A stretch of 64,000 nt of DNA, from positions 62,001 through 126,000 of the forward strand of contig NZ_WMJZ01000005.1 in NCBI RefSeq assembly GCF_009711095.1, read 5' to 3'. Made by a program: the position numbers and the translations under genes. The notes below the pieces were generated by a model. The model had not been told where the DNA came from and ran no database searches. It was given only the letters and a program-made list of their open reading frames with translations. This document shows positions 31,722-47,301 of the stretch, one piece after another; positions within the stretch are counted from its first letter, which is position 1; every line of letters starts with the position of its first letter. Source of the stretch: Intestinirhabdus alba. GTDB lineage: Bacteria > Pseudomonadota > Gammaproteobacteria > Enterobacterales > Enterobacteriaceae.

Positions 31722-32147
31722 TTAGTGCGGTCTGAAGCCCTTAAACAGCTTGTCTACCTCGCCGCTCCCCTGATCCAGGGTTGAGCGGTCATTAAACATC
31801 GAAGTGAACAGCATGATATTACCCGGCGACCTCTCGGCCAGCACAATATATTGCCAGTAGGTCACGCCTTCCGCAGGTTTAAACGAAAAAGTTAATTTGG
31901 CAATTTTAGAAAAAACGGCCGTAGGGTCAGGATGCTGTAGTGAAATTTGCTTATAGTTGCCGCATTTTGACTGCAGAATTTTCAGCTGGCCCTGCAGATA
32001 TTGTTCAAACGTTTCTCCATCCGCGGGTCGATCCCGGCTGATATTGACTGCCTGGCCTGAAGCAAGGCTCACAATATTTATGGTCTGGCACAGGGCATTA
32101 TCAGGGAAATGAATCGTGCCCTCATTGCAAATACAGGTCTGCGTCAT
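31722..32147 (-). CDS. DUF1795/DcrB-type protein, EagR-like chaperone, orphan
   Basis: From ATG 32147 the protein has 141 residues, with an AAGG site that lies just past the adhesin stop. A start at 32177 inside the adhesin gene is possible. The pattern IHFPDNALCQTINI, VNISRDRPADGETFEQYLQGQL and YWQYIVLAER resembles the EagR/DUF1795 family, which chaperones the transmembrane parts of type VI Rhs effectors. It has no signal peptide, so it is probably cytoplasmic. No Rhs, VgrG or type VI gene is in the window. It is the last gene of the fimbrial operon by spacing (16 nt). Confidence 0.65.
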   Translation of the reverse strand: MTQTCICNEGTIHFPDNALCQTINIVSLASGQAVNISRDRPADGETFEQYLQGQLKILQSKCGNYKQISLQHPDPTAVFSKIAKLTFSFKPAEGVTYWQYIVLAERSPGNIMLFTSMFNDRSTLDQGSGEVDKLFKGFRPH

Positions 32148-32163
32148 TAAATTTACCTTAAAA

Positions 32164-33210
32164 TTACTCGTAATCAATGTTGTAAAAAAGTACCGACTGA
32201 ACCTCGCCGGCCGATATAGTTGTTCCGGTTGCGTAGTATCGGGCGCGAAGAGGAATAGTCACGGTTGAAAGCCTGTTCTCAAAATTCCCTACAACAAATT
32301 TTTCACCCGGTACAACAGGAACATAGCTCGAACCATCTGCGCCCTGAAGCAGCTGCAGCGCGATATTTTCGGCGTTTAATCCGGTCTCTAAATCCTTCCA
32401 GTGGAACAGCCCCTGGTCAGCCATTCCCGCCACGTTATTACCGGTAATCTTCATGACGATGCTCTGCGTACTCCATAAATCAGAGTTACAGATGATGCTG
32501 ACATTAAAATCCCGGCTGGGGCTTTCAATAGGCCCGACAGAATGAATGCTGCTGGTGTTCAGCGTATCAATTGTGGCTGTGAAATTACCGCTACCGTTTA
32601 TATCACAGGTTTGGATAGTGAAATCTAAGTTACTTCTGCCGTTCTTTAAATAATATGTCAGATCGGTATCAGTACCAAGGCTGCTCTGCACCGAAAAAAG
32701 CTTCATGGTATTACTTTTTACATTAAGCTTCTTGTTTTCTCCGGTTTTAACCAGCTCGATAGTCACGTTGACAACCGCCCGTGGCAGGTAACTGTTATCT
32801 ATACTATTACTCACCCAGGGAATATTTGTTTCAACGCCGGTGCGGAAAATTTTTGCGCTTGTCCCCCGATCGCCGTTGATGGTGATATAAATGGCCAGGC
32901 CGCTATCGCTGCCCAGCATATTGGCCAGGTTTTCGCGCCGGATAACGATCTCTTCCGGCGTGGTATCCCATGAGCTTGTTTTGCTTAGATCTTTACCACA
33001 CCATAGGCTGAGTTCCATCTCCTTGCGGTAAAGGACGGTTCCGACCGGCGCACTGCTGTTGATCTGCCTGGGAACATCCTTTGCAAAATCAATCCCCGAA
33101 TTATTAAGAGACTGTGAGTCTGTTCCACATTTTAAATCAGCCTGTGCCGGAAGCGCGACGGACAGCAGCGCCGTAATAAAGATCAACAGGCCGACGTTGA
33201 GCTTACACAT
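32164..33210 (-). CDS. Fimbrial tip adhesin / minor pilin
   Basis: From ATG 33210 (AAGGA 8 nt upstream) the protein has 348 residues. An alternative ATG at 33234 overlaps the usher stop as ATGA and adds 8 residues. A signal peptide ends near PAQA|DLKCG. A receptor-like N-terminal part (about 25-195) precedes a pilin domain with paired Cys and the C-terminal pattern LSTVTIPLRARYYATG...FYNIDYE. The two-domain layout is that of tip adhesins; the ligand is unknown. Confidence 0.8.
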   Translation of the reverse strand: MCKLNVGLLIFITALLSVALPAQADLKCGTDSQSLNNSGIDFAKDVPRQINSSAPVGTVLYRKEMELSLWCGKDLSKTSSWDTTPEEIVIRRENLANMLGSDSGLAIYITINGDRGTSAKIFRTGVETNIPWVSNSIDNSYLPRAVVNVTIELVKTGENKKLNVKSNTMKLFSVQSSLGTDTDLTYYLKNGRSNLDFTIQTCDINGSGNFTATIDTLNTSSIHSVGPIESPSRDFNVSIICNSDLWSTQSIVMKITGNNVAGMADQGLFHWKDLETGLNAENIALQLLQGADGSSYVPVVPGEKFVVGNFENRLSTVTIPLRARYYATGTTISAGEVQSVLFYNIDYE

Positions 33211-33230
33211 AAATTTATTCCTTTTCGCAT

Positions 33231-35828
33231 TCATCGAATCTGTCCCTGGTCGTTCTTCGAAGAATCACTCTGCGTAAAAGCCAGGCTCTGCTGGATGCCG
33301 GGATCGTCACCATCACAAACGGTGTTCAGACGTTCAATGTTCTTTTCAGGTGCAGATTCCTTCAGGTCAATATCAAAGGTGCAGGTGTACTGCTGCCTGT
33401 TACCCCAGTTGATATTGAGGCGTTCTTTTCCAACGTTCAGTCGGGCATAGATTTGGCCACCCTGAGCCACGACGCCAATATGCTCACCCTGGCTATCCTT
33501 TACCGACGCGCCGAACGGCAGCGCATCGCCCTCCTGGGTGGTGGCCCGAATCAGCACCATCCGGCCTTTGCTGGTGGCATAATTAAGCTTCACAATTGCG
33601 CCCTGCGTCGGGGCGATCTGCTGGCTGGTCGTATCCAGCTCGACGTCGAGCGGCAGGCCTTTGGGGTTGATAGCCACGTTATTAATACGGTAAGGCGTCA
33701 GGTAAGGCACAATCGCATAGCCCCGGTGATTTAGCGTAATGCCGGAGTATCCTTCCACGCTGGCACCAGCGGCATCTTCTGCCGAGACGATCGCTATGGT
33801 ATTCAGGCTGTCATAAGGGCTGGTGACGATCCCTCCGGAGAAGGCTACAACACTTCCGCTCAGACCGGCGGTATAGCTGTGATATCCCTTACCTTTGGAG
33901 AAGCTGCCGCTGAGCGTAGCGTCCTGGAGCTTATAGGTGCCGCTCAGGTTGCCGGTGTAGTTATTATCGCTATCGCGCCCGGCCGATACGTTGTAGTTCA
34001 GCCGATCCTGTTTGCCGGCGACGCCGCTGACCTCAAGCTGTGAGGTGGTGCCGTGCTTATCGATGGTGGTATAGCTGTGCAGGGTTGGCGTGTGGTATCC
34101 CCTACCTAACGGAATGGAGAAATTGAGCAAATACTGCGTCTCTTTTTCCCGGTTGCGGTTTTCCGTGCGGCTGACCGCCAGGCCGTACCCCAGCCATTTG
34201 TAGGTGTTGTTGTATCCCACCTGGTACTGCGTGTTGCTGCCGACGTTATTCCAGTAATTCTCGCGATAGCCTGAGACGTAAAGCTGGCCGAGATCGTCGC
34301 CAAAATCCTGGCTCAGGGTCATGGATACCCGGTTACGCGGACGATTGATGGTGCTGAAGCTGGTGCTGTAATCGTCATGCTTTATGCTGTCTGCCAGATA
34401 AACGGCGTTATGCAGATCGAGGTAGCCTGAGGATGAAAAACGGTAGGCCGCCAGGGAGATGCTGCTGTTCGTCGCGGCGATATATTTGCTGTAGCTGGTA
34501 CGCACGCTGACGCCATTTTCCGTATGCGCGTTTTTATCAAAGCGCGCGCCGGTAATGTCAAAAGCAAACGCCCCGACGGGGGTGCCCAGCGCGGTGCCCA
34601 GAATGCCGGAGTAGTAGAAATCCGTGGCCGTTACGCCGGTATAGGCGGTAAGAACGTTATTGACTCCGTGCTTCCAGGTTCCCTGAAACACATAGGGATC
34701 GTCAGAGACGTTGAAGTTGCGCAGGCGTCCCATCATCAGGCTGTAGCTTATGCGCCCCGGACGCAGGAGTTCAGCGACTGAGGAGAAGGGAACAGAGAAA
34801 GTGTTTCGGGAACCATCGGCTTCGGTGACCGTAACCTCCAAATCGCCGCTATAGCCCGTGGGGTAAAGATCTTCAATCGCGAATTCGCCCGGCGGAACGG
34901 AGGTTTCATAGATGACCCGATCGCGCTGTTTGATTGACACTTTCGCATTTGTCCGGGCGATGCCGCGCACAACCGGCGCATAGCCGCGCAGTGAGTCGGG
35001 TAACATTTGCTCTGCGGTGGCAAGCCGTATACCGCGAAATGAGAAAGAGTCAAAAAGTTCGCCTGAAGTACTGGCATCGCCGAGCAAAATGCGCGATTTC
35101 CATGTCGGGATATCACGCTGTAGATTCGTCGAAAAATTGTTATAGCTGTCTCCGGAACTGTCGTTCCAGCGGTAAGCCCCCGAGTGTTGGAGCATCCAGG
35201 CACCCATATTTAGCCTTCCTCTGATGTCGCCATAGAAGGATTCATAGGTATTACCCTGATTATGCTGCTCAAAATAGGTAGAGTTGTAGCTGAGATAAAG
35301 CGCCTTCTCGCCATAGGACCATACGGCGGGGGGGACGTAGCCGCGGGCTGCCTGGTTGATATAAGCCTGAGGCATGCTGACGTCAAGACGCATGTCTGAC
35401 AGGTTCAGGCGCGCCTGCGCCTCCGGAATAAGCGACTCCAGGTTTGGGCATTCAGACTTGCCGTTCAGCGCCGCCATACTCTCTTTAGACAGACGGGTCA
35501 TGTTCAGATTAAGACGGGCGAATAATGTCTTATCAAAACAGAGCCGGGAGATATTGTTGTCGCCCTGTACGGTAATGGCTGCACGATCAATAAGACGTCC
35601 GTTAAGATAAATATCAGGCGTATAATTCCCCGGCAGGATACGATATTCGCCGTTAAAGCGGCTGATATCCACCGTCTGGCCGACGGTATCTCTTAAAAAA
35701 TCTGGATTGAAATAAACGTCCGCTAAAGCGTTAGCGGTGGGTAAACCTGCCACAACGGCAATAATACTGGTCGAGACCAGAGAAAGAGTGAATCCATTCA
35801 TTTTTGAATAATACATAATCGCGTCCAT
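33231..35828 (-). CDS. Fimbrial outer-membrane usher
   Basis: The protein has 865 residues. A signal peptide runs to about residue 36 (NALA|DVYFNPDFL). It has an N-terminal periplasmic domain with GNYTPDIYLNG, a 24-strand beta-barrel with plug domain (GYAPVVRGIARTNAKV, YPTGYSGDLEVTV), and C-terminal domains ending at CTFDIDL. About 40 polar residues follow that point and look like an extension of the usual usher end. The start is the least certain part because no clear ribosome binding site is seen. Confidence 0.9.
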   Translation of the reverse strand: MDAIMYYSKMNGFTLSLVSTSIIAVVAGLPTANALADVYFNPDFLRDTVGQTVDISRFNGEYRILPGNYTPDIYLNGRLIDRAAITVQGDNNISRLCFDKTLFARLNLNMTRLSKESMAALNGKSECPNLESLIPEAQARLNLSDMRLDVSMPQAYINQAARGYVPPAVWSYGEKALYLSYNSTYFEQHNQGNTYESFYGDIRGRLNMGAWMLQHSGAYRWNDSSGDSYNNFSTNLQRDIPTWKSRILLGDASTSGELFDSFSFRGIRLATAEQMLPDSLRGYAPVVRGIARTNAKVSIKQRDRVIYETSVPPGEFAIEDLYPTGYSGDLEVTVTEADGSRNTFSVPFSSVAELLRPGRISYSLMMGRLRNFNVSDDPYVFQGTWKHGVNNVLTAYTGVTATDFYYSGILGTALGTPVGAFAFDITGARFDKNAHTENGVSVRTSYSKYIAATNSSISLAAYRFSSSGYLDLHNAVYLADSIKHDDYSTSFSTINRPRNRVSMTLSQDFGDDLGQLYVSGYRENYWNNVGSNTQYQVGYNNTYKWLGYGLAVSRTENRNREKETQYLLNFSIPLGRGYHTPTLHSYTTIDKHGTTSQLEVSGVAGKQDRLNYNVSAGRDSDNNYTGNLSGTYKLQDATLSGSFSKGKGYHSYTAGLSGSVVAFSGGIVTSPYDSLNTIAIVSAEDAAGASVEGYSGITLNHRGYAIVPYLTPYRINNVAINPKGLPLDVELDTTSQQIAPTQGAIVKLNYATSKGRMVLIRATTQEGDALPFGASVKDSQGEHIGVVAQGGQIYARLNVGKERLNINWGNRQQYTCTFDIDLKESAPEKNIERLNTVCDGDDPGIQQSLAFTQSDSSKNDQGQIR

Positions 35829-35847: not shown

Positions 35848-36567
35848 TTATTCGTGTTTTATCTGGAGCTTAACGGGTGAACCAAAGTCGTTAATATATT
35901 CAATAAATAGTGGGTTGCTGCCCGGCATTGTTTTAGAGGGGTAAGACTCCGAGCCAAACGGCGGTATCATGCTTCCTGACAGAGAGGTAATTACTTTATC
36001 CCCGGACATTATTTTTATATTTGACAGGGTAACAAACAGCGGTGTGGGGTTTTTAATAACGATACACTGTTTTTTGTCGCACGGTGCCGTTGACCAGCTC
36101 AGCTTTTCAACCTGTTCGCCAACGGATCCGATGTTCAGGCCGCTGGGGCGATAAAAAAACTTTATACGCGAACGAAAGGCCATCTCAATGCGGTTAGATG
36201 TCGCATTTTCTTGCCTTGCCGGAATATCCAGAACGTTAAGCCAGAATACCGACTCGCGATCCTGTGGAAGGTTATCACCGGTATAGGTAATACGCAGCGT
36301 CTGCCCCTGTGCGGGTTCAATTCGGGCGACCGGGGGAAGAATAACAAAGGGTAGCTCAAGCTGGCTGACCTTAGCTGAACTATCGCCCTTATCCATCCAG
36401 ACCTGTACTAACGATGGCTTGTTCCCGTTATTTTCCAGTCGGACCGTGATCTCTTTCTCATCAGAAGGATAAATAACTCGTGTGCCATAAATGATGACGC
36501 TGGAGAGCGCCTGAAAGGATGAAAGCGTGAGGCTAAAGATTAAAAAGAGACGTAAAGCGGAATTCAT
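35848..36567 (-). CDS. Periplasmic fimbrial chaperone (short F1-G1 loop type)
   Basis: Starting at MNSALRLFLIFSL with GGAG 6 nt upstream, the protein has 239 residues. A signal peptide of about 22 residues precedes a PapD-like two-domain fold. Conserved parts are the YPSDEKEITVRLENN strand, the Arg in LRITYTG and the short loop before SVFWLNVLDIP. A disulfide is likely in CDKKQC. It donates strands to pilins before usher delivery. Confidence 0.92.
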   Translation of the reverse strand: MNSALRLFLIFSLTLSSFQALSSVIIYGTRVIYPSDEKEITVRLENNGNKPSLVQVWMDKGDSSAKVSQLELPFVILPPVARIEPAQGQTLRITYTGDNLPQDRESVFWLNVLDIPARQENATSNRIEMAFRSRIKFFYRPSGLNIGSVGEQVEKLSWSTAPCDKKQCIVIKNPTPLFVTLSNIKIMSGDKVITSLSGSMIPPFGSESYPSKTMPGSNPLFIEYINDFGSPVKLQIKHE

Positions 36568-36625
36568 TTCGTTCTCCGGCAATAGCAGGGAACCGAAGCT
36601 CCCTGTTTTTAAGATAAGCGCGGTA

Positions 36626-37156
36626 TTACAGGTAGTCGATAGAGTAAGTAACAGAAGTCTCTATGGCACCCGCGCCAGCTGCGCCAGTTGCGAAGTAGCG
36701 GGCTGAGTAGCTCAGGTTAGCGGCACCGCTAGTCAGCGGGGTTGCAGCATTGCTACGCTGGCTGGTATCGCCTGCTTTCAGCTCGTGACCGGCTTCGTCC
36801 ATCAGCTGGATCTTAACGTTAGTGGCATTACCGGTAGTTAATGTGTTCTTCAGAAGACCGGTGCTGGCCTCAACGTTCGGACCTGCTTCAAAGAACGCAC
36901 GCACGTTGGTGGCATTCGTGCAGCCGGTCAGATTCATCGTGAAGTTGGTAGCCCCCGCAGTGGCGTTCGCGGCGGCCAGCATGCTTGTAGGCAGCGTCGG
37001 CAGCGTTACGGTAGCATCGCTTGTGCCACCGTTAACTTTGACAGTACAGGTTGCCGAGGTCAGCTTGCCCTTGATGGTGATAGTGCCGTTAGACGCCATA
37101 GCCGAGGTGGAACCCAGAGCCAGGGCAATCAGCGAGGAAAGAATTACTTTTTTCAT
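36626..37156 (-). CDS. Major fimbrial subunit, FimA-like pilin
   Basis: The protein has 176 residues with a signal peptide ending SAMA|SNGTI near residue 21. Cys37 and Cys79 form the standard disulfide, and the C-terminal beta-strand has the YSARYFATG...TYSIDYL pattern with the penultimate Tyr region of type 1 pilins. It is the first gene of the pilin-chaperone-usher-adhesin operon. Confidence 0.93.
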   Translation of the reverse strand: MKKVILSSLIALALGSTSAMASNGTITIKGKLTSATCTVKVNGGTSDATVTLPTLPTSMLAAANATAGATNFTMNLTGCTNATNVRAFFEAGPNVEASTGLLKNTLTTGNATNVKIQLMDEAGHELKAGDTSQRSNAATPLTSGAANLSYSARYFATGAAGAGAIETSVTYSIDYL

Positions 37157-37251: not shown

Positions 37252-37506
37252 TTAGCGAAAGAGGCCTCTTAAAGCCCCACCCACTAAATTGGCAGAAAAC
37301 AGCGCGATAACGGCCAGCCCGGTTACGATGGCGGCACCGTATTGATCGCCCTTTCCTAATGCCGGAGAGGGTGTAGTCGAACTTGACTGCCAGTCCTGTT
37401 TACCTGAATCGCCGCCGGAATTCAGATTACGGAAGTAGTCAAGAATAGCGGAGGTTAAGCTTCCGCCAGAAATCTGATTTATTTCTTCGTTATTAAGGTT
37501 GCGCAT
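37252..37506 (-). CDS. Double-glycine leader peptide 1 (microcin-like)
   Basis: From ATG 37506 (AGGTGG just upstream) the precursor has 84 residues. The leader MRNLNNEEINQISGG (15 residues) ends in Gly-Gly, with the hydrophobic spacing of class II microcin leaders. The predicted mature peptide has 69 residues: a polar, Ser- and Gly-rich first half and a hydrophobic C-terminal helix (AAIVTGLAVIALFSANLVGG) ending in LRGLFR. I do not recognise the mature part. It lies 19 nt after peptide 2 on the same strand, so the two are probably cotranscribed. Confidence 0.78.
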   Translation of the reverse strand: MRNLNNEEINQISGGSLTSAILDYFRNLNSGGDSGKQDWQSSSTTPSPALGKGDQYGAAIVTGLAVIALFSANLVGGALRGLFR

Positions 37507-37525
37507 TTTAACCACCTTTATCCTG

Positions 37526-37840
37526 TTATTTAGGAACGTTCATGGTGAAGTCAAAGAACTGCTCTGTATAGTTATTAAATACTTCCAGGGTCTTATCCCA
37601 GTCGTTGGCTAAACCATACAGAACGCCCTGCACGCCATAGACAATGCCGCCCACGCACATGCCGACCAGGGCCGCAATGATGCCAGCGCCAAGAATGCCG
37701 CCGGTGTTGCCGCCGCCGACGCCGCCTTTGAACAGACCGCTGGTGATGCCCATTACGCCGCCCAGAACGCCAGCGCCAATAGCGCTAAGCAGGCCCGCGC
37801 CGGAAACTTCGTTGATCTCCAGTACATGTAACTCACGCAT
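37526..37840 (-). CDS. Double-glycine leader peptide 2 (colicin V-like, glycine-rich)
   Basis: The precursor has 104 residues. The leader MRELHVLEINEVSGA is very close to microcin V and E492 leaders, with cleavage after Gly14-Ala15. The mature 89 residues begin GLLSAIGAGVLGG, contain repeated GxxxG spacing through a long hydrophobic region, one Cys (GMCVGG), and end in an aromatic, acidic tail. This resembles pore-forming class II microcins in style, not in detailed sequence. The AAGGA site is well placed. Confidence 0.8.
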   Translation of the reverse strand: MRELHVLEINEVSGAGLLSAIGAGVLGGVMGITSGLFKGGVGGGNTGGILGAGIIAALVGMCVGGIVYGVQGVLYGLANDWDKTLEVFNNYTEQFFDFTMNVPK

Positions 37841-37923
37841 ACAAAATCCTTTTTCAGATAACTTATTTAAATAAATGATGTTGTTGCTATTAACTATCGT
37901 AAATCATTAAACATGGCAGCAGC

Positions 37924-37962
37924 GTTAAGACGCTTGTTTCTGAAGGAAACAAACGTTTTAAC
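37924..37962. promoter_or_regulatory. 39-nt dyad upstream of the peptide genes
   Basis: Two 17-nt arms (GTTAAGACGCTTGTTTC and GAAACAAACGTTTTAAC) are separated by TGAAG, with 15 of 17 positions complementary. It lies 84 nt upstream of peptide 2 and 120 nt past the exporter gene. On the transcript it has no U-tract, so an operator or mRNA structure is more likely than a terminator. Confidence 0.55.
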
Positions 37963-38081
37963 TAAAACTTTATGTTGCTGTTTTATGACTTTACTAAGTA
38001 ATATGCAGAAGAAAAAATCTCTGCTGTAATAATGTTAATGAATGTGAATTTCCAACGCAATAGAATAAAATCCAAATCCGG

Positions 38082-40211
38082 TTACTCTTTTGATAATACG
38101 CTGTGTGGTATTTCCGTAATGCTGCCCTGGTTAAGTAAGATTATTCTATCCGCACTGCGAATGGTCTCAGGTCGGTGGGCAATAATAATTCTTGTGATAT
38201 CCATTTTTTTAATCGCGTCGTTAATTCCCTTCTCTCTTGCAATATCAAGATGGCTGGTCGCCTCATCCAGCAGCAGGATTCTGGGCTGACGATACAGCGC
38301 GCGGGCTAACAGAACGCGCTGCATCTGCCCACCGGATAATGACGAACCCATATCGCCGACCAGGCTGTTGTAGCCCATTGGCATTGCCATGATATCTTCA
38401 TGGATCTGGGCCAGCTTCGCGGCCTGTTCGACCCGTTCTGGCGTGAAAAGGGGATCGAAGAAGCTGATATTGTCAATAATTGACCCGGCAAACAGGATAT
38501 CGTCCTGCATCACGCTGCCCACGTGCTCCCGATACCAGCTCATGCCGAGCTTGCGAATATCCTGACCGTTAATTTCAATACAGCCGTCTTCAGGCTTAAG
38601 CAGGCCCAGCATTAGCTTCGCTAAGGTCGTTTTCCCCTGTCCGGATGGCCCGACGATAGCAACGGATTCCCCTGCCTGAACGCTGAGCGAGCAGCTCTGG
38701 AAAATCCACGGTTCCGTTGCGGCATAGCGAAACTTAAGGTTTTTTACCTCAATAGGGAGCGCGGTATCGCTGGAGGGCAGGGCGATGCTGTTATCCATAT
38801 CTCCCTCTTTTTCCGTCAGCACGATGTCGGCCAGACGCTCGCCGTGGAGGCGCAGCATCCAGAACTCGATCATGGCGTCGATAAGCCCGGTGGCACGACC
38901 GGTAAACTGATCGGCAAAGCTGGTGAAGGCGATCAGCATCCCCGCTGAGAAATTTCCTTCCAGCACCTGCAGCGCCGCCATCCAGACCAGCACAATGCGC
39001 CCGACGCCTGAAATCAGCCCCTGCAGGGTATTGAAACCGATCGACAGACGCTGGATATGGATCCCTTTATTTGTCGCTTCAACCAGCTCGTTCGCATAGG
39101 TTGAAACGCGCATCTCCTGCTTATTGTTCAGCTTAACGGCCTGTACGCCCCTGATGGATTCAAGAAGCTGCGACTGGGCGCGCGCCGAGGCGATAAGCTG
39201 TTCTTCATTTGCCTGGCGAAACGGGCGAAAGGAAACCCAGCGGATCAGGATATAGATCAATAATAGCCCCAGCACCACAAACGTCAGCCGGGCGTTATAG
39301 GTAAACAGGACGACCAGCGTCACGATGGCCATGACGCCGTCCAGAATTGAAGAGATAAAGCGGCTGGTTAGCGTATTCTGAATCGTGGTGATCGAGCCGT
39401 AACGTGAAACAATATCCCCTACGTGGCGCTCCTCGAACCAGGACATCGGCAGCCCCAGCAGGTGGGAACAGACGTTAGCAGACCATTGCACGCTCAACAT
39501 GCTTGAAAACCACGTCGTCACCCAGGCGCGTATCGCCGAGAGAATATTTTGCAGCACCACCACGGTAATGAACGCGCAGCCCAGCAGTGTAAGAAGATCG
39601 TAGTCAGCTGAAACCAACACCTGGTCCATAACCCACTGGCTGTAAAAGGGCGTCAGCAGACCAAAAACCTCCAGCCCGATAGAGAGGATCATCACCTGAA
39701 AAAACGCTGAACCAATGCCGCTGACGTTGCCGATAAGCTTCAGCATCGAGAGCGACTCTTTCTCCTCTTTTTTTACAAAATCGGCGTTGGGGATCAGCTC
39801 GAGAGCGACGCCGGTAAAGGATTTGGAGACCTCACTCAGCGCGACCTCACGTCGGCCCCGGCTGGGATCGTGAATAATAATTTTCTTTTTCGTGACCTCT
39901 TTGAGTACCACAAAATGGTTCATATCCCAGTGTAAAACGCAGGGCATACTGAGCTTATGCAGTTCGTCAATCTCCAGACGTAGGGCGCGGGTCGACATAC
40001 CCAACTGCTGGGAAACTTGCATAATATCGGCCAGCGTCGCGCCCTTCAGTGAGGTAGAGAAGCGCCGACGTAGCGTGATCATATCTATTTTATAGCCGTA
40101 ATAATTGGCAATCATTCCGACACAGGTCAGGCCGCATTCCGCCGCCTGCGTTTGCTGTATGACGGGCAGCCGCTTGCGCCAGGAAAAGTTTAGTTTTTCA
40201 AGTAAATTCAT
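38082..40211 (-). CDS. Peptidase-containing ABC exporter (PCAT, CvaB-like)
   Basis: The protein has 709 residues. The N-terminal C39 peptidase has Cys26 in QAAECGLTC, His99 in DMNHFVVL and Asp115 in IHDPSRG, so the catalytic triad is complete. Six transmembrane helices (about 160-430) are followed by the ATPase domain, with Walker A GPSGQGKTT, signature LSGGQMQR and Walker B ILLLDEATSHLD. By family, it removes the double-glycine leader and exports the peptide. It lies 24 nt after the HlyD-type gene and ahead of the two peptide genes. Confidence 0.94.
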   Translation of the reverse strand: MNLLEKLNFSWRKRLPVIQQTQAAECGLTCVGMIANYYGYKIDMITLRRRFSTSLKGATLADIMQVSQQLGMSTRALRLEIDELHKLSMPCVLHWDMNHFVVLKEVTKKKIIIHDPSRGRREVALSEVSKSFTGVALELIPNADFVKKEEKESLSMLKLIGNVSGIGSAFFQVMILSIGLEVFGLLTPFYSQWVMDQVLVSADYDLLTLLGCAFITVVVLQNILSAIRAWVTTWFSSMLSVQWSANVCSHLLGLPMSWFEERHVGDIVSRYGSITTIQNTLTSRFISSILDGVMAIVTLVVLFTYNARLTFVVLGLLLIYILIRWVSFRPFRQANEEQLIASARAQSQLLESIRGVQAVKLNNKQEMRVSTYANELVEATNKGIHIQRLSIGFNTLQGLISGVGRIVLVWMAALQVLEGNFSAGMLIAFTSFADQFTGRATGLIDAMIEFWMLRLHGERLADIVLTEKEGDMDNSIALPSSDTALPIEVKNLKFRYAATEPWIFQSCSLSVQAGESVAIVGPSGQGKTTLAKLMLGLLKPEDGCIEINGQDIRKLGMSWYREHVGSVMQDDILFAGSIIDNISFFDPLFTPERVEQAAKLAQIHEDIMAMPMGYNSLVGDMGSSLSGGQMQRVLLARALYRQPRILLLDEATSHLDIAREKGINDAIKKMDITRIIIAHRPETIRSADRIILLNQGSITEIPHSVLSKE

Positions 40212-40234
40212 TATATAACCCTGTTTTTATTCTT

Positions 40235-41494
40235 TTAAATTGTGCTGCTGCGGCGCAGAGCGTAAAGCGGCTCCAGTACCCATTCGTACAGCCGGCGCTT
40301 GTCGATCAGGAAATCGGCCTCCAGAGCGCTTCCCGGCTGAAGTTTGACCTGCTGCCCGTAGGCATGAATAAACTGCTTATCCAGTTTGACTTTCACCAGG
40401 TAATGCTGCTCGGTTACCTGAGAATTACCGGTGATAACGGAGACTTCCTGGGGAGAGAGTGAAACGCGGGACACATCAGAAACCACGCCATACTGCTGGC
40501 CAAATTTTTGCCATGGGTAAGCCTGATAGCGCAGAGTGACCCGCTGGCCGGGAACGATAAAGCCAATTGCCCGGCTGCTGACCATAATCCGGGCCTGCAG
40601 GGCCGCATTTTCCGGCAGCAGCGACGCCACGGTCTGTCCGGCATTAACCATCTGCCCGCGCTTAACGAGCACAGAGGCAACCATTGCGTTGAGCGGCGCA
40701 TTCAGCACGATGGAACGCCGGGATTCATTCTCCATCATCGCCTGCTTAAGCTCGGAGAGTTTCCTGTTTATATCGTTGATCTGGTTTAGTTTATTAATTG
40801 GCTGTTCACGAATTTGCTGCAGCGTACGGGTAAGCTGCTGTTGAAGATCAATCTGCTGACGCGCCACGTCCTGCGCCCTGGTCTGTGCTTCCAGTCGGGA
40901 AATTTCCTGCTCTTCGACCTGACGGTTTGAGGCGTATCCTTCATCACGCATGAGTTTCAGTTTTTTCAACTGCTCATCGGCAAGTCGGACCTGCCGGAGA
41001 CGACTGGCATAGATGCCATCTAATTTTTTCAGCTGCTGCTCTAAAAGTAATTTCTGATTTTCATAACCTCTGAGCGTTTCGTCTGAGAGCACATCGAGAT
41101 TTTTCCGCTCCTGTTCTAATGCTTCATTCTGCAGCGCAAGCTGCTGAGCGATGCTTTCTCGTGTCTGACCATATTTGGTGGCGATTTCTGAAGAGAGGGT
41201 GGCGATCGTACTGCCTTTCTTTACGCTTTGTCCTTCCTGAATGGGAAGCTCCACGATGGTGCCGGCGCTAACGGCGACAATATCCATCACCCCGTCCACG
41301 GGCACCAGCGCGCCGGTCATGGTTTCCCGCTTGGTATAGCTGCCGAAAAAAACCAGCAGCAGCGTAGCGACCGTCACCAAACCTGCCAGGGAGATGATAA
41401 CCCAGCGCCAGGGTGGACAATACAATGCCACGCTGCCAATAGATTTTGCTTTATTCGCCTCCAGGGCTTCCTTGCGAAATAATGAATTGGGCAT
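40235..41494 (-). CDS. HlyD/CvaA-family membrane fusion protein
   Basis: From ATG 41494 the protein has 419 residues; an in-frame TTG at 41506 is possible. One N-terminal transmembrane helix (about 30-50, WVIISLAGLVTVATLLLVFF) is followed by a lipoyl/barrel-sandwich segment, a long coiled coil (about 110-255) and a beta-barrel domain. It bridges the ABC exporter and the outer-membrane channel. It resembles CvaA. Confidence 0.92.
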   Translation of the reverse strand: MPNSLFRKEALEANKAKSIGSVALYCPPWRWVIISLAGLVTVATLLLVFFGSYTKRETMTGALVPVDGVMDIVAVSAGTIVELPIQEGQSVKKGSTIATLSSEIATKYGQTRESIAQQLALQNEALEQERKNLDVLSDETLRGYENQKLLLEQQLKKLDGIYASRLRQVRLADEQLKKLKLMRDEGYASNRQVEEQEISRLEAQTRAQDVARQQIDLQQQLTRTLQQIREQPINKLNQINDINRKLSELKQAMMENESRRSIVLNAPLNAMVASVLVKRGQMVNAGQTVASLLPENAALQARIMVSSRAIGFIVPGQRVTLRYQAYPWQKFGQQYGVVSDVSRVSLSPQEVSVITGNSQVTEQHYLVKVKLDKQFIHAYGQQVKLQPGSALEADFLIDKRRLYEWVLEPLYALRRSSTI

Positions 41495-41509
41495 AACCTT
41501 TTCCAAAAA

Positions 41510-42841
41510 CTAATTGTATGATGAACAGCTAAATTTATTCAGATATGCATAGTCGAGCTCACCGGTTGCTTTGGCGAGTTGAATATTGGCTGTTATATAG
41601 TCGTATCGGGCCTTAGCGATCTCTTTTAATGACTTGTAGTAGTCACTTTCAGCGTTCAGCATATCCAGAACGGTTCTTTGCCCCATCTCTTTTCCATATC
41701 GGGTGGATTCGAGACGTTTTTTTGCTGAAGAGATCGATTTTTGATAGGCGCGTATTTTCGCATCGCCGGCCATGATGCTGTACCAGGCCCTTTCCGCTTC
41801 CTCCAGCGCCTTACGCTGGGCATCCAGCAGCAGCTGGCGGGACTGCTCTTGACGGTGAGCGGCTTCGATGCTTTGCGCGATATGGCCTCCTCCCGCAAAT
41901 ATTGGCACGGAGACATTAATGCCAATATTGGTATTTCGTGTCTTTGAGGTTGTACCGAACAGGGTGTCGAAGTCATTTTCGTTTTGTCCCCGGCTCCAGT
42001 TATTGCCATAGGAGGCCTGCAGGGTAATGACCGGTAAATGATTACCCGTACTGGCGATAACGTCGGCCCTGCTTTGATTAAGCGTAAAGGAGGCTAACTG
42101 TACATTAAGATTATGCCTGTTGCTTTGCGCCTTCACTTTTTTGAGGTCGGGAAGAGGCGGCGGTACGAAGCATTCCATAATATTAAGCGGTACAAGATCT
42201 CCCGACAGGCCCGTTAATTTTGTGAAACGGATCCTGGCGTTATTCAGATCGCTTTCGGCGATAATAACCTCAACCGTGGCGTTGTCGTAGTTTGCCTGGG
42301 CTTCATCAACTTCCAGCCGCGTTTGCTCGCCAAGTTCCAGCCCCCGCTGCGCCTGGCGTAACTGCTGACGAAAGGCGCTGCTGGTGCGTTGCGCATTTTT
42401 TAATGCCAGCGCGGCATAGGCCACGGAAAACCACGATTCGCTGACGTCGCTAATAAGCTGTTGTTGTGCCAACATATAGTTGATTTGACCCTGGTCGGCC
42501 ATCGCCTCCGCGCGCTTCCAGGTGGCATATTTTGCGACATCAAAGATCGGCTGGCTTAAATTGAGGCTGTAATTATGCCGGGTTACCCCCGCAGCATAGG
42601 TCGCTTTAGGCTGATCCTGCTTAGAGAAACCGCCATTAAGGCTTATCTGAGGTAATAAGCCTGAGAAACCCTGTAGACGTTTTTGCTGTTCAGCATCGTT
42701 AAGCTCACGCGCCGCGCGAATACCTGTGTCATAACTATCTGCGGCCAATATGGCCTGCTGAAGCGTCAGGGATGCAGCGTTATGGCTGAAGAAGCAAAGT
42801 GACAGCGCCAGCATGGAATGGCGTAATTTTTTATATTGCAT
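41510..42841 (-). CDS. TolC-family outer-membrane channel
   Basis: The protein has 443 residues with a signal peptide ending near SHNAAS|LTLQQ. Two OEP repeats are present (about 30-210 and 240-435) with typical helical segments (LLDAQRKALEEAERAWYSI, LDMLNAESDYYKSLKEIAKARYDYI). Most microcin systems borrow the housekeeping TolC, so a dedicated copy is notable. It starts 4 nt after the LuxR-type regulator stop, suggesting coupling. Confidence 0.9.
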   Translation of the reverse strand: MQYKKLRHSMLALSLCFFSHNAASLTLQQAILAADSYDTGIRAARELNDAEQQKRLQGFSGLLPQISLNGGFSKQDQPKATYAAGVTRHNYSLNLSQPIFDVAKYATWKRAEAMADQGQINYMLAQQQLISDVSESWFSVAYAALALKNAQRTSSAFRQQLRQAQRGLELGEQTRLEVDEAQANYDNATVEVIIAESDLNNARIRFTKLTGLSGDLVPLNIMECFVPPPLPDLKKVKAQSNRHNLNVQLASFTLNQSRADVIASTGNHLPVITLQASYGNNWSRGQNENDFDTLFGTTSKTRNTNIGINVSVPIFAGGGHIAQSIEAAHRQEQSRQLLLDAQRKALEEAERAWYSIMAGDAKIRAYQKSISSAKKRLESTRYGKEMGQRTVLDMLNAESDYYKSLKEIAKARYDYITANIQLAKATGELDYAYLNKFSCSSYN

Positions 42842-42845
42842 CGCG

Positions 42846-43508
42846 TTATTCCATCATTCCGGTAACGTACATATATTTAATTAATTCACTGTTACTGGAC
42901 AGGTTGAGCTTCTTCATCGCATTCTGTTTTTGCGTCGCTACGGTGCTGTTTGACCTGTTTTTACGGTCAGCTATATCCGAAATCGAACACCCCTGAGCGA
43001 CCAGGTACAGCACCTCCCACTCTTTTGGCGTAAGGGGGTATTGCTGGTTATCCGTTTCGGCCATAATCTGCATTAATGATTTTGAAATAAAAGGAATATT
43101 TTCTTCATGCTGGATAAGCTCGATAATTTTAAGAAATCCGGCGATGCCCTCATCGACGCTAATGGTGGCTTCAAATTTCATATCAATAATGTGACGTAAC
43201 AGATAAGGATGCTGATTGGCGACAAGAACCGCTCTTTTGACATGACGATCGAGGCACAACCGATTGAATTTTTTACTGTTGGCAAGCCATGTTTTATTGT
43301 TTGATAAAAAGGCGAACTCAGTAAACAGAAGATCAACCTGGTTGTCCTCTATCGCGGCGAGCAGGGTGGGCATGGTGTGATAAAAGGCAACTTCTGTGCC
43401 GCTGGTTTGTATTTCTTTCTTAAGATAATGGTCGATTACTCCCTGAAATAGTGAAAAATCATAGAATACCGCAACATTAAGTTTATTGGATTTATTGTTC
43501 ATATTCAT
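42846..43508 (-). CDS. RcsB-like LuxR-type regulator with modified receiver domain
   Basis: The protein has 220 residues. The C-terminal GerE helix-turn-helix (about 158-217) contains LTPKEWEVLYLVAQGCSISD and STVATQKQNAMKKL. The N-terminal domain aligns in outline with response-regulator receivers, but the phospho-acceptor position reads LFTEFAF, with Glu64 in place of Asp, which could mimic phosphorylation. This resembles unphosphorylated RcsB partners such as BglJ. It heads the exporter operon (4-nt gap to the TolC-type gene). Confidence 0.82.
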   Translation of the reverse strand: MNMNNKSNKLNVAVFYDFSLFQGVIDHYLKKEIQTSGTEVAFYHTMPTLLAAIEDNQVDLLFTEFAFLSNNKTWLANSKKFNRLCLDRHVKRAVLVANQHPYLLRHIIDMKFEATISVDEGIAGFLKIIELIQHEENIPFISKSLMQIMAETDNQQYPLTPKEWEVLYLVAQGCSISDIADRKNRSNSTVATQKQNAMKKLNLSSNSELIKYMYVTGMME

Positions 43509-43694: not shown

Positions 43695-44258
43695 CTATGC
43701 GGATAAGGTATATTGATGCATTCCGGTAATGTCGCGGCAGACCATAACGGCGGTGCAGTGACATTTAGACAGGCCATAGCTTGCCATAACTCTGCGCTTC
43801 AGAGCGTAAAGCGATTTTTCTGATAGTCCCATTCTGGCCGCCAGCTCTTTATGAGATTCGCCGCTGTTAAGATACTGGAAGTACCATTTCTCCTGCTGAC
43901 GAATATCTTTGTAAACGATGGGGGTTTTGGCCGCCAGATGTAAACATGAAATAAGGTTTTCAACTTTGGCGTTATCAGGGTATAGCCAGGGGAACTCTCT
44001 GCCAAGAGAACATTTTATGATAATGCTGATATTCAGTAGAATAATCACGCGACAGGCGGACATCACCGGCAGATGAAGAAATTTTTGCCTCAGCGCAATA
44101 TCGGCCACGTTTATGACAACAACGTCACCTGCGTTGGGAAGGGGCATTTTCGCAAAGTCATTGGTATGAATAAACAGAACCTGACCATAGAGTTTGAGAG
44201 GTATCTTCTGGAGTCCTTCAAGAAACCAGCGATCGTCCGATATAAAATAGAAATTCAT
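43695..44258 (-). CDS. LuxR-type HTH regulator
   Basis: The protein has 187 residues with GGGAAG upstream of the ATG. The C-terminal helix-turn-helix (about 120-180) has YLNSGESHKELAARMGLSEKSLYALKRRVM. The N-terminal part resembles short receiver-like domains of fimbrial and capsule regulators but lacks a recognisable phospho-acceptor. It is 186 nt upstream of the RcsB-like gene. It may control the fimbrial or peptide operon; that is inferred from location. Confidence 0.75.
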   Translation of the reverse strand: MNFYFISDDRWFLEGLQKIPLKLYGQVLFIHTNDFAKMPLPNAGDVVVINVADIALRQKFLHLPVMSACRVIILLNISIIIKCSLGREFPWLYPDNAKVENLISCLHLAAKTPIVYKDIRQQEKWYFQYLNSGESHKELAARMGLSEKSLYALKRRVMASYGLSKCHCTAVMVCRDITGMHQYTLSA

Positions 44259-45297
44259 AATCTTCCCTTATTATGATACGACGACTGGCGATGGTAAACC
44301 TATACCAGTGGCCAGTAAAACCAATTAAAAAACTCCCTTTGTAGTGATAGTGACAGCAGTTCATAGCCTAAGCTAGTCAAATTATCTTATGTTGTCTCAG
44401 TCATGGCGTAGCGGGGTTTTTTCGAATTAGAAGAATCTTTAATTATTTTCTTTTAGGGGCAGAGAGACTTATTAAGATTAATTTTTCAGAGAGTGATCTC
44501 GCCGTAGTATGCGCTAAAAAAAGTAGGCGACTGGCCGGTGCTCGCCGGACCTTGTGACGATCGCCGGCGTCGATATGAGTTAAATTAATCTGATTTCAGG
44601 CAGGGACATTGCCTGTGGTCGACACCTGCCGCTGGCGGCGGTATAGATATCATTATTTAACCAGCAGATTCCCGTACTGCGGGATAGCATGCCGGTTTAT
44701 GGCTGCGATTACCGGTAGCGGCCTGTCTGAGAACCGGTGTTATCTCTCTTAAGTTGGTTGATCTTTTCTCACCGACACCTGCAGATTGCCGGTTTGACGC
44801 CATCTTCAACCCTGCGGCATAGTGTAATCATCCAATACGGGAGAAGGCCTGTTCTGCTATCGTCCAGGCACCAGCTGCCGCTGGTTTTCGTTCAGAACGG
44901 AGCCAGCCAGCGGATAGCCGATGGGCGAAAAGGGATGTCTTAGGTCTTAAGTTTTTTCTCACCAATTGGGTTTTAGTGAACGTTGAAATTTTTTTAAGGG
45001 CCTGGAGCGATGTCTGTATCAATATTTAAAATGGTTAAGGATTTTTCTAAAGTAAGGCGAGAAGATGGGGGAGAGCCGATGGCTATACCAGGAATGCGCC
45101 AGGCTATTTTGAGCGGTGTGGGTGCGATTAGCTTAGCCTGGCGTGATTACATTTTATTATAATATCTCACTTTAACTTATATTTTATGAGTTTTCGGGTT
45201 TTTCAGATTTTTCGCTTGCGTTGGCAGTAAGTAGTAAATATATTATCAATCTTAATCCAAGAAAGGTTTGAACTAAAGCCGTGAGGTGAAAATAATA
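44259..45297. other. 1-kb AT-rich intergenic region
   Basis: No convincing gene is visible. It holds a 10-bp inverted repeat (CGCCAGGCTA 45097-45106 and TAGCCTGGCG 45134-45143), TATAAT at 45158-45163, and a duplicated motif (TCTTAAGTT...TTTTCTCACC at 44747-44772 and 44945-44963). It separates the minus-strand LuxR gene from the plus-strand MarT-like gene, so it probably carries two divergent promoters. Confidence 0.5.
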
Positions 45298-46191
45298 ATG
45301 AATAATGATATAAAAGAAGGCTATTTTGGGAAGGAATTACTTAATCGCTATATAATAAACGAAACTGTAGAATTTCATCCGGCGGCAGGCACCTTACGTG
45401 ATGTCACTCGGCAGCATTCGGAGGTTACGCTTAACTCCCCGGCTGCGCGCTGTCTGCTGCTCTTGATCACCAAAGCCGGAGGGATAGTATCACAGCAAGA
45501 GTTTATGGATATCGTGTGGCAGAAGAATGGTATGAATGTCACGCCTAACGCATATTACCAAAACATATCAGTGTTGCGTAAGGGGCTTGAGAAAATAGGT
45601 TTAAATAAAGAGATCGTGGTTACAATACCACGTATTGGCGTTACGCTAACCAGCGATGTGAGCATTCAAAAAATTACGCCTAAGGTCGATACGGTTTTAC
45701 CAGTTGAAAATGCTGAAATTCCCATAAAGCCCGTGGGGCGATTATCCGAAAAATGTGATGTAAATAATCCAGCACATCCCCCAGGAACCGCTGAGGAGCA
45801 TATGGAAAGATCTGACGAAGAGGCATTGGTAAGTTTTAAGAAATCGACCGGTCGTTACTCTATTATTTTTTGTTTCTTAATGGCGGCCTCCTTAATATTA
45901 ATTACAGAGTTGTATTCCGCTAAAAAAAAAGCAACAGATTATTTTTCTGACTATAAACAAGTTACGTGGATCTCAGGATGTAGTGTGTTAATGTCGGATC
46001 GATTTTCTCTTTCGGTTGATGAAAAAAAACAAATTGCCAAACATTACGGTAATGAATTCAAAAAGGAATGTAAAAAATATCCCTGGCTATACATCACTAA
46101 AATTCCTAATGTACAGCGTACGTCGGTTATTCGGTGTGAGCAGCCCTTTGAGCAAACAACTTCATGCATATCAGAATATTATATTAAATAA
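45298..46191 (+). CDS. CadC/MarT-like membrane-bound winged-helix regulator
   Basis: From ATG 45298 the protein has 297 residues (GTG 45286 is an alternative; GAGGTG lies upstream). An OmpR/PhoB-type winged helix spans about 22-120 (SQQEFMDIVWQK, YYQNISVLRKGLEKIG). A linker leads to one transmembrane helix (187-207). The periplasmic domain of about 90 residues has four Cys (228, 258, 280, 290), enough for two disulfides. This is the ToxR/CadC/MarT layout, in which the outer part senses and the inner part binds DNA. Confidence 0.85.
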   Translation: MNNDIKEGYFGKELLNRYIINETVEFHPAAGTLRDVTRQHSEVTLNSPAARCLLLLITKAGGIVSQQEFMDIVWQKNGMNVTPNAYYQNISVLRKGLEKIGLNKEIVVTIPRIGVTLTSDVSIQKITPKVDTVLPVENAEIPIKPVGRLSEKCDVNNPAHPPGTAEEHMERSDEEALVSFKKSTGRYSIIFCFLMAASLILITELYSAKKKATDYFSDYKQVTWISGCSVLMSDRFSLSVDEKKQIAKHYGNEFKKECKKYPWLYITKIPNVQRTSVIRCEQPFEQTTSCISEYYIK

Positions 46192-46379
46192 TTGATTGTT
46201 TTATTGACCACCTAAGCTATCGAGCTTTTATATTAACAATCCAACATGTTTTGATTAATGATCTGGGAAGCTGTCTGTCAAAAATTTACGCCAAAGACAT
46301 GACACAACACAATCAAAACAAACTTAAACACAGACAATATTGAGTTGCGTTATAATTGTTATAACTCAGGAAAATAAAA

Positions 46380-46850
46380 ATGATAAGGTCAAGGATGACA
46401 TGCTATTTAAGCCACACAGGCTTAATTTTATTACTAATGGCAATATATTATTTTCATGCAGGTCTGTTTAAAGATGATGAATTTAGCTGTCGGGCGAACT
46501 TTGTGCAACATTACCCAGACTTAACGCTGAATATTTCACTTGATTATCATTTCTCTGGTAAAAAAGGCATGGTTAGCATGAATGGTTATATCGTTAATGA
46601 ACCAGAGAAGATATTCAATCGTAAAATTTACTTTAGCTATGAAAAAAATGGCGATATCTATTATTTGCATCCTGAAAAGAATGTTATATTTCCGGGGAAT
46701 AATGTTGAAAGTAAATGGCTGGAAAAGTATGAGCCAAAATTTTTTATTAATTCTGAGGAGGATCTTTACTTGAGGATACTGGAGCAGGGGGATGATAAGC
46801 GTATGTTTATCTTCTCAACGATACCCACCTATATATGCCATGCCTATTAA
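46380..46850 (+). CDS. FidL-like small membrane-anchored protein
   Basis: The protein has 156 residues with one N-terminal transmembrane helix (about 10-28) and a periplasmic domain containing Cys (FSCRANF near the start, TYICHAY at the end). The pattern SCRANFVQHYPDLTLNISLDYHFSGKKG is that of FidL-type proteins, found next to MarT in Salmonella SPI-3. It probably modulates the preceding regulator, in the way that ToxS does ToxR; that is inference. The gap to the regulator gene is 188 nt. Confidence 0.75.
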   Translation: MIRSRMTCYLSHTGLILLLMAIYYFHAGLFKDDEFSCRANFVQHYPDLTLNISLDYHFSGKKGMVSMNGYIVNEPEKIFNRKIYFSYEKNGDIYYLHPEKNVIFPGNNVESKWLEKYEPKFFINSEEDLYLRILEQGDDKRMFIFSTIPTYICHAY

Positions 46851-47230
46851 ATGATGTGGGCATTTTTATTGCGTCGGTATGTCCGGGATAGTCCTGACGG
46901 CAGAGATGACAGTGGTAGCACTTTCCGGCGCACTCATGAACGGCACTCCGCCAGGCTGACACAGGCTGGTAATTAAAAGCGCGGATGCTGCGCAAAAATT
47001 GTCGCAGCTGTGCAAGCTATCGATCGGATGCGCGATGGTAGTGACGTCTGGCAGAAAAAGGAGCGATTGCCGGACAAACAGGCAATCATGCCGGCCGGAG
47101 CAAAAGGCTAAAATCTGCGGCTGTAAGCTATGGAGCCAATAGTGGTGGAAAAGGTCAGGCTGGAGAAGGCTCCGGAACAGGGAAGCGACAGGATACTTTA
47201 AAGCGCAGGCCGGCTTTTCTGTGTAAAGGT

Positions 47231-47252
47231 TACGCCCTGTGGGGCGTTTTTG
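47231..47252 (+). terminator. terminator-like hairpin
   Basis: ACGCCC/GGGCGT with a 4-nt TGTG-type loop is followed by TTTTT, oriented to stop plus-strand transcription from the FidL side. Confidence 0.6.
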
Positions 47253-47266
47253 TGTTGCCGAAGAGA

Positions 47267-47296: not shown

Positions 47297-47301
47297 CGCC
47301 G

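What the first reader, a model, noticed from the sequence alone, without database searches (positions are those of the whole stretch)
37252..43508. Two-peptide double-glycine export system with its own exporter trio and regulator
The sequence shows two small precursors with microcin-type leaders (MRNLNNEEINQISGG and MRELHVLEINEVSGA). A C39-ABC exporter with intact Cys26-His99-Asp115, a CvaA-like adaptor, a dedicated TolC-type channel and a LuxR-type regulator lie on the same strand. By family this is a class II microcin secretion system. Two points differ from known ones: a private TolC homologue, and no small membrane protein that looks like an immunity gene. The mature parts are not ones I recognise.
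Basis: partly seen in the sequence, partly recalled or inferred. Interest (0 to 1): 0.78.

Follow-up and report, generated by a model that had tools for sequence, protein, structure and literature searches.

The report
Fimbria-linked peptide export system
A bacterial gene cluster links a machine that exports two small sticky peptides to the genes for a hair-like adhesive fibre and to a chaperone type known from a different secretion machine, which suggests that the peptides act at cell contact; what they do is untested here.

Summary
The row runs on, same strand, into a chaperone-usher fimbria (pilin, chaperone, usher, tip adhesin) and ends in an Eag-family chaperone gene. Exporters of this clade (63% identity or more) have an usher nearby in 25 of 33 distinct loci; other C39 loci have one in 0 of 60, 1 of 59 and 5 of 44. 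The peptides are under purifying selection and PepA stands directly before a fimbrial gene in all 15 loci where I identified it. No immunity gene is conserved. The Eag-like protein matches SciW (E 1.2e-16) and EagT6 of type VI secretion. Best reading: a fimbria-coupled, Cdz-like glycine-zipper peptide system acting at cell contact; toxicity undecided. A 2017 paper mentions in passing that Cdz-like clusters often include fimbrial genes; the listings and passages I saw showed no integrated chaperone-usher operon with private TolC and Eag chaperone.

The parts
42846..43508 (-). LuxR-type regulator (GerE domain); first gene of the row
   Evidence: PF00196 E 2.7e-12; 4 bp before the tolC-type gene
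41510..42841 (-). dedicated TolC-family outer membrane channel
   Evidence: TIGR01844 270 bits, over cut-off
40235..41506 (-). HlyD-type adaptor
   Evidence: PF13437 E 9.8e-15; TIGR01843 under its cut-off
38082..40211 (-). C39 peptidase-ABC exporter, Cys26/His99/Asp115, Walker A at 521, LSGGQ at 625
   Evidence: PF03412, PF00664, PF00005; residues checked
37526..37840 (-). PepB, 104 aa, leader MRELHVLEINEVSGA, glycine-zipper mature part
   Evidence: Ka/Ks 0.08 for the mature part; 12 GxxxG against 5.0; alignment A2
37252..37506 (-). PepA, 84 aa, leader MRNLNNEEINQISGG, hydrophobic C-terminal half
   Evidence: Ka/Ks 0.21; alignment A3; its 3 GxxxG are not significant, P 0.10
36626..37156 (-). 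major pilin, FimA type
   Evidence: PF16970 E 3.6e-12
35848..36582 (-). periplasmic pilus chaperone
   Evidence: PF00345 E 5.8e-43
33231..35828 (-). outer membrane usher
   Evidence: PF00577 E 1.3e-165
32164..33234 (-). two-domain tip adhesin
   Evidence: PF00419 at residues 208-355; best Foldseek match CupB6 tip adhesin, E 8.8e-9, but TM only about 0.3
31722..32147 (-). Eag-family (PF08786) chaperone-like protein, 141 aa from the ATG at 32147
   Evidence: PF08786 E 9.8e-13; profile finds SciW E 1.2e-16 and EagT6 2.9e-7; model and fold search; start read
43695..44258 (-). second LuxR-like gene; weak family match; relation to the system inferred
   Evidence: PF00196 E 0.013, under cut-off; counterparts labelled in L073 and L255 only
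45286..46191 (+). CadC-like regulator, possible regulator of the locus
   Evidence: PF00486 E 5.8e-8; homologues beside several related loci
46380..46850 (+). small protein that travels with the CadC-like gene (orf156)
   Evidence: no Pfam match; beside CadC-like genes in L045, L047, L054, L062-L064 and L066

Best explanation
This is a fimbria-coupled type I secretion system. PepB and PepA are made in the cytoplasm. PepB is very hydrophobic and glycine-zippered, and an Eag-type chaperone probably shields it until export. The C39-ABC exporter cuts the leaders at GA/GG and passes the peptides out through its own adaptor and TolC-type channel. The same or a neighbouring transcription unit builds a chaperone-usher fimbria with a tip adhesin. 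The peptides most likely stay at the producer's surface, on or beside the fimbria, and act on neighbouring cells at contact, as CdzC/CdzD do in Caulobacter. Shown: genes, order, conservation, co-inheritance, Eag family membership. Inferred: export, surface retention, Eag binding PepB, action at contact. Undecided: whether that action is toxic or only adhesive.
For: (1) Same-strand row of 11 genes; the only gap above 100 bp is 241 bp before PepB. (2) An usher lies near the exporter in 25 of 33 distinct clade loci, against 0 of 60, 1 of 59 and 5 of 44 other C39 loci (Fisher p 1.8e-13 for 16/20 against 0/60 and 5.3e-6 for 12/16 against 5/44). (3) The window usher is 39-46% identical to the ushers beside this exporter in three Burkholderia records and Andreprevotia (L068, L071, L317, L072) but at most 34% to the eight other ushers of its own genome. 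(4) The exporter keeps a fimbrial neighbour although the fimbria was exchanged: ushers of 31-33% identity in L058, L063-L066, L265 and 27-29% in L055, L057. With the last type the cargo changed too: L055-L057 carry Cys-containing peptides with a VVGG/IIGG leader downstream of that fimbria. (5) PepA is directly followed by a fimbrial gene in all 15 loci where I identified it, a pilin gene in 14 and an adhesin gene in L071; in L069 and Pantoea vagans C9-1 the order is permuted and the peptides head the fimbrial genes; in genome G085 they lie with a fimbria (L043) while the exporter is elsewhere (L266). (6) Eag family; in C9-1 that gene overlaps the exporter gene by 8 bp. (7) PepB glycine zipper; it fits the sequence criteria for Cdz-like proteins (PMC5380434, passages).
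Against: No experiment. No immunity gene is conserved, whereas Cdz has one. 8 of 33 distinct clade loci show no usher in the stretch (L061, L062, L067, L070, L266, L267, L269, L270); of these L061 and L070 are short contigs and L062 has a pilus chaperone. PepA and PepB were not found in L055-L057. The Eag gene is intact in only 11 of 33, so it is not universal, and all 7 genomes tested that carry it have a type VI system, so a service to T6SS effectors is not excluded. Conservation of PepB between beta- and gammaproteobacteria is unusual for a toxin. The 241 bp gap allows a separate promoter. Fimbrial links also occur in other C39 lineages: adding five non-clade family loci fetched earlier for other reasons (L048, L049 with; L053, L173, L177 without) to the 5 of 44 gives 7 of 49.
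Confidence: 0.55

Rival explanations
1. Non-toxic fimbrial accessory: the peptides are matrix or surface components that stiffen, anchor or aggregate fimbriated cells, as small GG-motif secreted proteins enable biofilm in Synechococcus elongatus (abstract seen). No immunity is needed.
For: No immunity gene conserved; mature PepB under strong purifying selection (Ka/Ks 0.08) and alignable from enterobacteria to Burkholderia and Andreprevotia; PepA next to a fimbrial gene in 15 of 15 loci.
Against: PepB resembles Cdz-like glycine-zipper proteins; the Eag clients described in PMC7773334 are membrane-inserting regions of toxins (passages); PepA is less conserved.
Confidence: 0.28
2. Ordinary diffusible two-peptide class II microcin, with the fimbria next to it by chance and an immunity gene elsewhere or not recognised.
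For: GG leaders, C39 exporter, adaptor and channel fit; weak matches to MccV (best E 0.021) and Bacteriocin_IIc (best E 0.00057) in 3 and 2 of 14 PepB proteins.
Against: Chance adjacency is unlikely; no adjacent immunity gene; no microcin model over its cut-off with the window peptides; private TolC.
Confidence: 0.12
3. The Eag-like gene belongs to type VI secretion and serves an effector encoded elsewhere; its place in this locus is incidental.
For: All 7 genomes tested with the gene have VipB and PAAR proteins; its best solved relatives are T6SS chaperones.
Against: prePAAR motif: 3 hits in 6599 ORFs of the clade stretches; two overlap the exporter gene in another frame and one is far off in the window (60252-62423, - strand), none in what I take for a real gene. 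The gene was labelled only with this exporter clade (0 of 60, 0 of 59, 0 of 44 other C39 loci; model trained on clade members). It overlaps the exporter gene in P. vagans C9-1. In G449 and G566 other Eag-like genes sit within 1 kb of PAAR genes, so T6SS effectors there have their own.
Confidence: 0.15

Closest known systems
Cdz system of Caulobacter crescentus and Cdz-like systems (PMC5380434, passages seen)
   Same: Small GG-leader glycine-zipper proteins exported by a type I system; a two-protein system. The paper mentions that many Cdz-like regions include adhesion genes such as thin aggregative fimbriae, and fimbrial adhesins, and lists Erwinia and Burkholderia, so its set may include relatives of this locus.
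   Different: Here: dedicated TolC, a complete chaperone-usher operon in the same row, an Eag-type chaperone, no conserved immunity gene. The cdz cluster has CdzI and no TolC gene.
Class II microcins (MccV and relatives; PMC10233263, passages seen)
   Same: GG/GA leader, C39 exporter, adaptor, TolC-type channel.
   Different: No adjacent immunity gene, TolC-type gene in the cluster, no match of the mature parts over a cut-off, fimbrial operon.
Eag chaperones of type VI secretion (SciW, EagT6; PMC7773334, passages seen)
   Same: Sequence family and fold; EagT6 residues I22, I24, S41 and Q58 have the same residue in the window protein (read).
   Different: No prePAAR effector in the locus; S37 and Q102 are not kept in the window protein, L66 is Cys; sits in a T1SS/fimbria row. 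The paper notes that PF08786 relatives also occur in T6SS-negative organisms.
GG-motif small secreted proteins of Synechococcus elongatus (names EbfG and PteB recalled; abstracts only)
   Same: GG-motif small secreted proteins with a role in biofilm.
   Different: Cyanobacterial; sequences not compared here; no chaperone-usher fimbria to my knowledge.

Membership tests
Class II microcin system | precursor with GG/GA leader and C39 exporter plus adaptor | tested here: met
Class II microcin system | immunity protein encoded next to the precursor | tested here: not met
   no conserved candidate in 41 clade stretches, 35 of them distinct; ORFs under 35 aa not examined
Class II microcin system | match to known microcin families | tested here: not met
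   no model over its cut-off with the window peptides; for 13 relatives only E-values were seen
Class II microcin system | antibacterial activity | not testable with these tools
   needs bench work
Cdz-like system | 60-151 aa protein, leader ending G[G/A/S], glycine zipper(s), short polar or charged C-terminus, T1SS within 10 kb | tested here: met
   PepB; criteria from PMC5380434. Its two zippers are separated by a lysine
Cdz-like system | immunity protein (CdzI-like small membrane protein) | tested here: not met
   orf156 is a remote candidate but pairs with a regulator gene
Cdz-like system | contact-dependent killing, peptides kept on the cell surface | not testable with these tools
   needs bench work
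Eag chaperone family (PF08786, SciW/EagT6 branch) | sequence and fold match to solved Eag proteins | tested here: met
   E 1.2e-16 to SciW over 139 positions; Foldseek best matches SciW and EagT6, TM 0.60-0.69, with PsbP-fold proteins close behind
Eag chaperone family (PF08786, SciW/EagT6 branch) | client-contact residues I22, I24, S37, S41, Q58, Q102 (EagT6 numbers) | tested here: inconclusive
   I22, I24, S41, Q58 kept in the window protein; S37 and Q102 not (read by eye)
Eag chaperone family (PF08786, SciW/EagT6 branch) | partner T6SS effector with prePAAR motif nearby | tested here: not met
   three motif hits in 6599 ORFs, none in a plausible gene
Chaperone-usher fimbria | pilin, PapD-type chaperone, usher and tip adhesin in one operon | tested here: met

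The most novel reading that the evidence does not exclude
A kind of secretion system not described as such: a C39 type I exporter built into a chaperone-usher fimbrial operon, in which an Eag chaperone, known from type VI secretion, keeps glycine-zipper peptides soluble for type I export, and the peptides are displayed with the fimbria to act on touching cells without a dedicated immunity gene. Fimbria and cargo are exchanged together as modules on one exporter.
Probability: 0.4. Interest if true: 0.78.

Novelty: new variant of a known kind. Interest (0 to 1): 0.6.

Why it matters
It would tie adhesion and small-peptide delivery together in one conserved unit, seen here in enterobacteria, Erwinia, Pantoea (also on plasmids), Burkholderia and Andreprevotia. 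It would extend Eag chaperones from type VI to type I secretion, and allow a direct test of whether glycine-zipper peptides need a cytoplasmic chaperone before C39 export. It also suggests that genome mining for microcins could mislabel fimbrial peptides as antibiotics.

Tried and rejected
Rejected: chance adjacency of exporter and fimbria. Rejected: an overlooked immunity gene conserved in the clade. I left the odds as they were. Tried and failed: excluding the T6SS rival by absence of T6SS; all 7 genomes tested have VipB and PAAR proteins. Not confirmed: that orf156 is FidL-like; a Pantoea neighbour is annotated so and matches PF15941, but the window protein has no Pfam match and did not pair with it. 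E. coli: with window 40300-43508, 1 of 5426 genomes has any match, covering 5%. PADLOC: no match for 5 proteins at E 0.01. Promoter and terminator scans were about as rich as shuffles. No adhesin ligand could be read from the model.

Data caveats: the loci of genome contigs and of the genome search overlap; six pairs have identical exporters (L054/L256, L055/L258, L056/L260, L057/L257, L065/L264, L069/L268) and were counted once: 20 plus 13 more. L060 and L263 are near-duplicates but counted as two. One search kept the best 80 of 485. The clade limit was set after seeing the gap in identities. The usher and Eag models were trained on clade loci and may miss distant members in controls. Weak, leader-level PepA labels in non-clade loci L113, L194, L224 and L278 have no fimbria and were not counted as PepA.
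Full report
What is there. The window lies on contig C120 of a draft genome of 4.83 Mb, enterobacterial by its closest relatives. The exporter has the C39 domain (PF03412, E 4.5e-38), the membrane part and the ATPase, with Cys26, His99 and Asp115. The channel passes the TolC-family model. PepB (104 aa) and PepA (84 aa) carry GA and GG leaders. They are real genes: against the relative L255 Ka/Ks is 0.08 for mature PepB and 0.21 for PepA. PepB has 12 GxxxG motifs against a mean of 5.0 in 10,000 shuffles (P 0.0001); PepA has 3 against 1.25 (P 0.10). PepB relatives match DUF5862 (PF19180) in 12 of 14 cases at E 0.1 or better, best 7e-9; the window protein only at 0.079.

Directly after PepA, on the same strand, come pilin, pilus chaperone, usher and a two-domain tip adhesin, and 16 bp after the adhesin a small PF08786 gene. 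The row LuxR, TolC, HlyD, C39, PepB, PepA, pilin, chaperone, usher, adhesin, Eag has gaps of 4, 3, 23, 241, 19, 95, 43, 19, -4 and 16 bp.

Is the link to the fimbria more than chance? I collected C39 loci by the exporter alone and then looked for ushers. In the named genome collection the tool kept the best 80 of 485 relatives; 20 have 63-88% identity to the window exporter and 16 of these 20 have an usher in the stretch, 0 of the other 60 do (p 1.8e-13). In a sample of the order, 60 loci were fetched (39-64% identity, one not measured); the one clade member (L207) and 1 of the other 59 (L188) have an usher. Within the window's own family, where ushers are common (9 in the own genome; 0.035 expected per 19 kb), 12 of 16 fetched clade stretches and 5 of 44 others have one (p 5.3e-6); the 44 are part of 117 non-clade places listed. 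Counted once, 25 of 33 distinct clade loci have an usher: 16 of 20 plus 9 of 13 further (window, L042, L207, L255, L259, L261, L262, L263, L265 with; L266, L267, L269, L270 without). Against a strict one-clade view: three of the 5 positives among the 44 (L299, L304, L308) share another arrangement, fimbria then a PepB-like gene then HlyD and C39, also seen in L045, L047, L048 and L049, which had been fetched for a PepB match; one (L294) has an usher only at the edge of the stretch. Of the three other C39 loci of the window's own genome, L038 and L039 show no usher (L039 is at a contig end) and L040 has one 6 kb from a distant C39 gene.

Co-inheritance. The window usher is 39-46% identical to ushers at the same exporter in Burkholderia (L068 45%, L071 39%, plasmid pRF23 46%) and Andreprevotia (L072 44%), but no more than 34% to the eight other ushers of its own genome; a 54-residue fragment scores 39%. 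The exporter clade also occurs with two further fimbria types, with ushers of 31-33% (L058, L063-L066, L265) and 27-29% (L055, L057) identity: the fimbria was exchanged, the link kept.

The peptides go with the fimbria. PepA was identified in 15 loci (13 window and genome loci, 2 plasmids) and is followed directly by a pilin gene in 14 and by an adhesin gene in L071. In L069 and in Pantoea vagans C9-1 pPag1 the order is permuted and PepB-PepA head the fimbrial genes, with the exporter at the other end. In genome G085 PepB and PepA stand with a fimbria (L043) and the exporter is elsewhere (L266). The third fimbria type (L055-L057) has neither PepA nor PepB; instead L055, L056 and L057 carry five small ORFs of another family (63-73 aa, leader ending VVGG or IIGG, several cysteines) downstream of the fimbrial genes, and a sixth relative lies in L040, between the fimbria and the exporter of the window genome's own fourth C39 locus. 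So cargo and fimbria seem to change together.

The Eag-like protein. PF08786 holds both DcrB and the Eag chaperones. A profile of 11 locus proteins finds SciW (E 1.2e-16, 139 of 142 positions) and EagT6 (2.9e-7) in the PDB. The AlphaFold model (pLDDT 85.8) matches SciW and EagT6 best in Foldseek, with PsbP-fold proteins from rank 3 and DcrB at rank 18; TM is 0.60-0.69 for the Eag proteins named, so the fit is fair, not close. Of the EagT6 client contacts named in PMC7773334 (passages), I22, I24, S41 and Q58 have the same residue in the window protein, L66 is Cys, S37 is Ala, and Q102 is kept only in L069, L207 and L270 (read by eye). The paper describes how Eag proteins hold helices with GxxxG/A motifs, which PepB is full of. 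The gene is intact in 11 of 33 distinct clade loci (window, L054, L059, L063-L066, L069, L207, L255, L270), reduced to a 51-codon ORF in L060 and its near-duplicate L263, where PepB is also a fragment, and was not labelled in the 60, 59 and 44 other C39 loci (clade-trained model). In P. vagans C9-1 it overlaps the exporter gene by 8 bp. Against: loci with both peptides but no such gene in reach are L042, L068, L071, L072, L073, L261 and pRF23, and L262 has PepB without it; all 7 tested genomes with the gene have T6SS.

Immunity. All ORFs of 35-260 aa in 41 clade stretches (35 distinct) were clustered. No unlabelled cluster both recurs widely and lies outside larger genes: of 153 clusters in three or more distinct loci 28 are not mostly shadows, and these occur in at most 5 loci, none in the window. 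The CadC-like gene and orf156 occur beside some loci; I take them for regulators.

What it does. Relatives give two precedents. Cdz proteins of Caulobacter are glycine-zipper peptides exported by a type I system, kept on the surface, and they kill on contact (PMC5380434, passages). Small GG-motif secreted proteins of Synechococcus are needed for biofilm (PMC4997328, abstract). The lack of an immunity gene and the conservation of PepB favour the second; the glycine zipper and the Eag protein favour the first. I commit to surface-held peptides acting at contact (0.55), leaving toxicity open.

Novelty. The 2017 Cdz paper notes that many Cdz-like regions include thin aggregative fimbriae, and elsewhere fimbrial adhesins (passages). 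In the listings of ten paper searches I saw no title or abstract about a C39 exporter in a chaperone-usher operon, and none of the 15 papers listed of 75 held both an Eag, DcrB or DUF1795 term and type I secretion or microcin. The library lacks most subscription papers. The Pantoea LPP-1 paper (PMC3505739, passages) counts seven fimbriae on these plasmids and holds no HlyD or TolC. A 2026 screen of 23 Pantoea, Erwinia and Xanthomonas microcin candidates, 12 of them active (PMC13174018, passages), holds no mention of fimbriae; whether PepB relatives were among its candidates I could not check.

Noticed in passing
L045, L047, L048, L049, L299, L304, L308: A second, more distant C39 lineage (about 41-43% identity) also lies behind a chaperone-usher operon, in the order fimbria, PepB-like gene, HlyD, C39, mostly with a CadC-like gene; an apparently separate link of fimbria and peptide export.
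   Followed up: partly
L040:9038-9235 and L055, L056, L057: A second GG-leader peptide family (63-73 aa, VVGG/IIGG leader, several cysteines) stands between fimbria and exporter in the window genome's fourth C39 locus and downstream of the third fimbria type: perhaps another fimbria-coupled cargo.
   Followed up: partly
L038, L039: Two further C39 exporter loci of the window's genome; L038 carries two GG-leader peptides.
   Followed up: no
L060 and L263: In Erwinia sp. ErVv1 and a near-identical genome PepB is a leaderless fragment, no PepA was found and only a 51-codon ORF of the Eag-like gene is left, while exporter and fimbria look intact: peptides and Eag-like gene seem to decay together.
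   Followed up: partly
L058: Two different C39 exporters stand on either side of one fimbrial operon in Pantoea sp. BAV 3049.
   Followed up: no
window 30000-53200: The locus sits between a tRNA-Leu (30521) and a tRNA-Met (53078), beside genes that look like secG and argG (names recalled), with G+C down to 42-43% around 44000-48000: possibly an insertion region.
   Followed up: no
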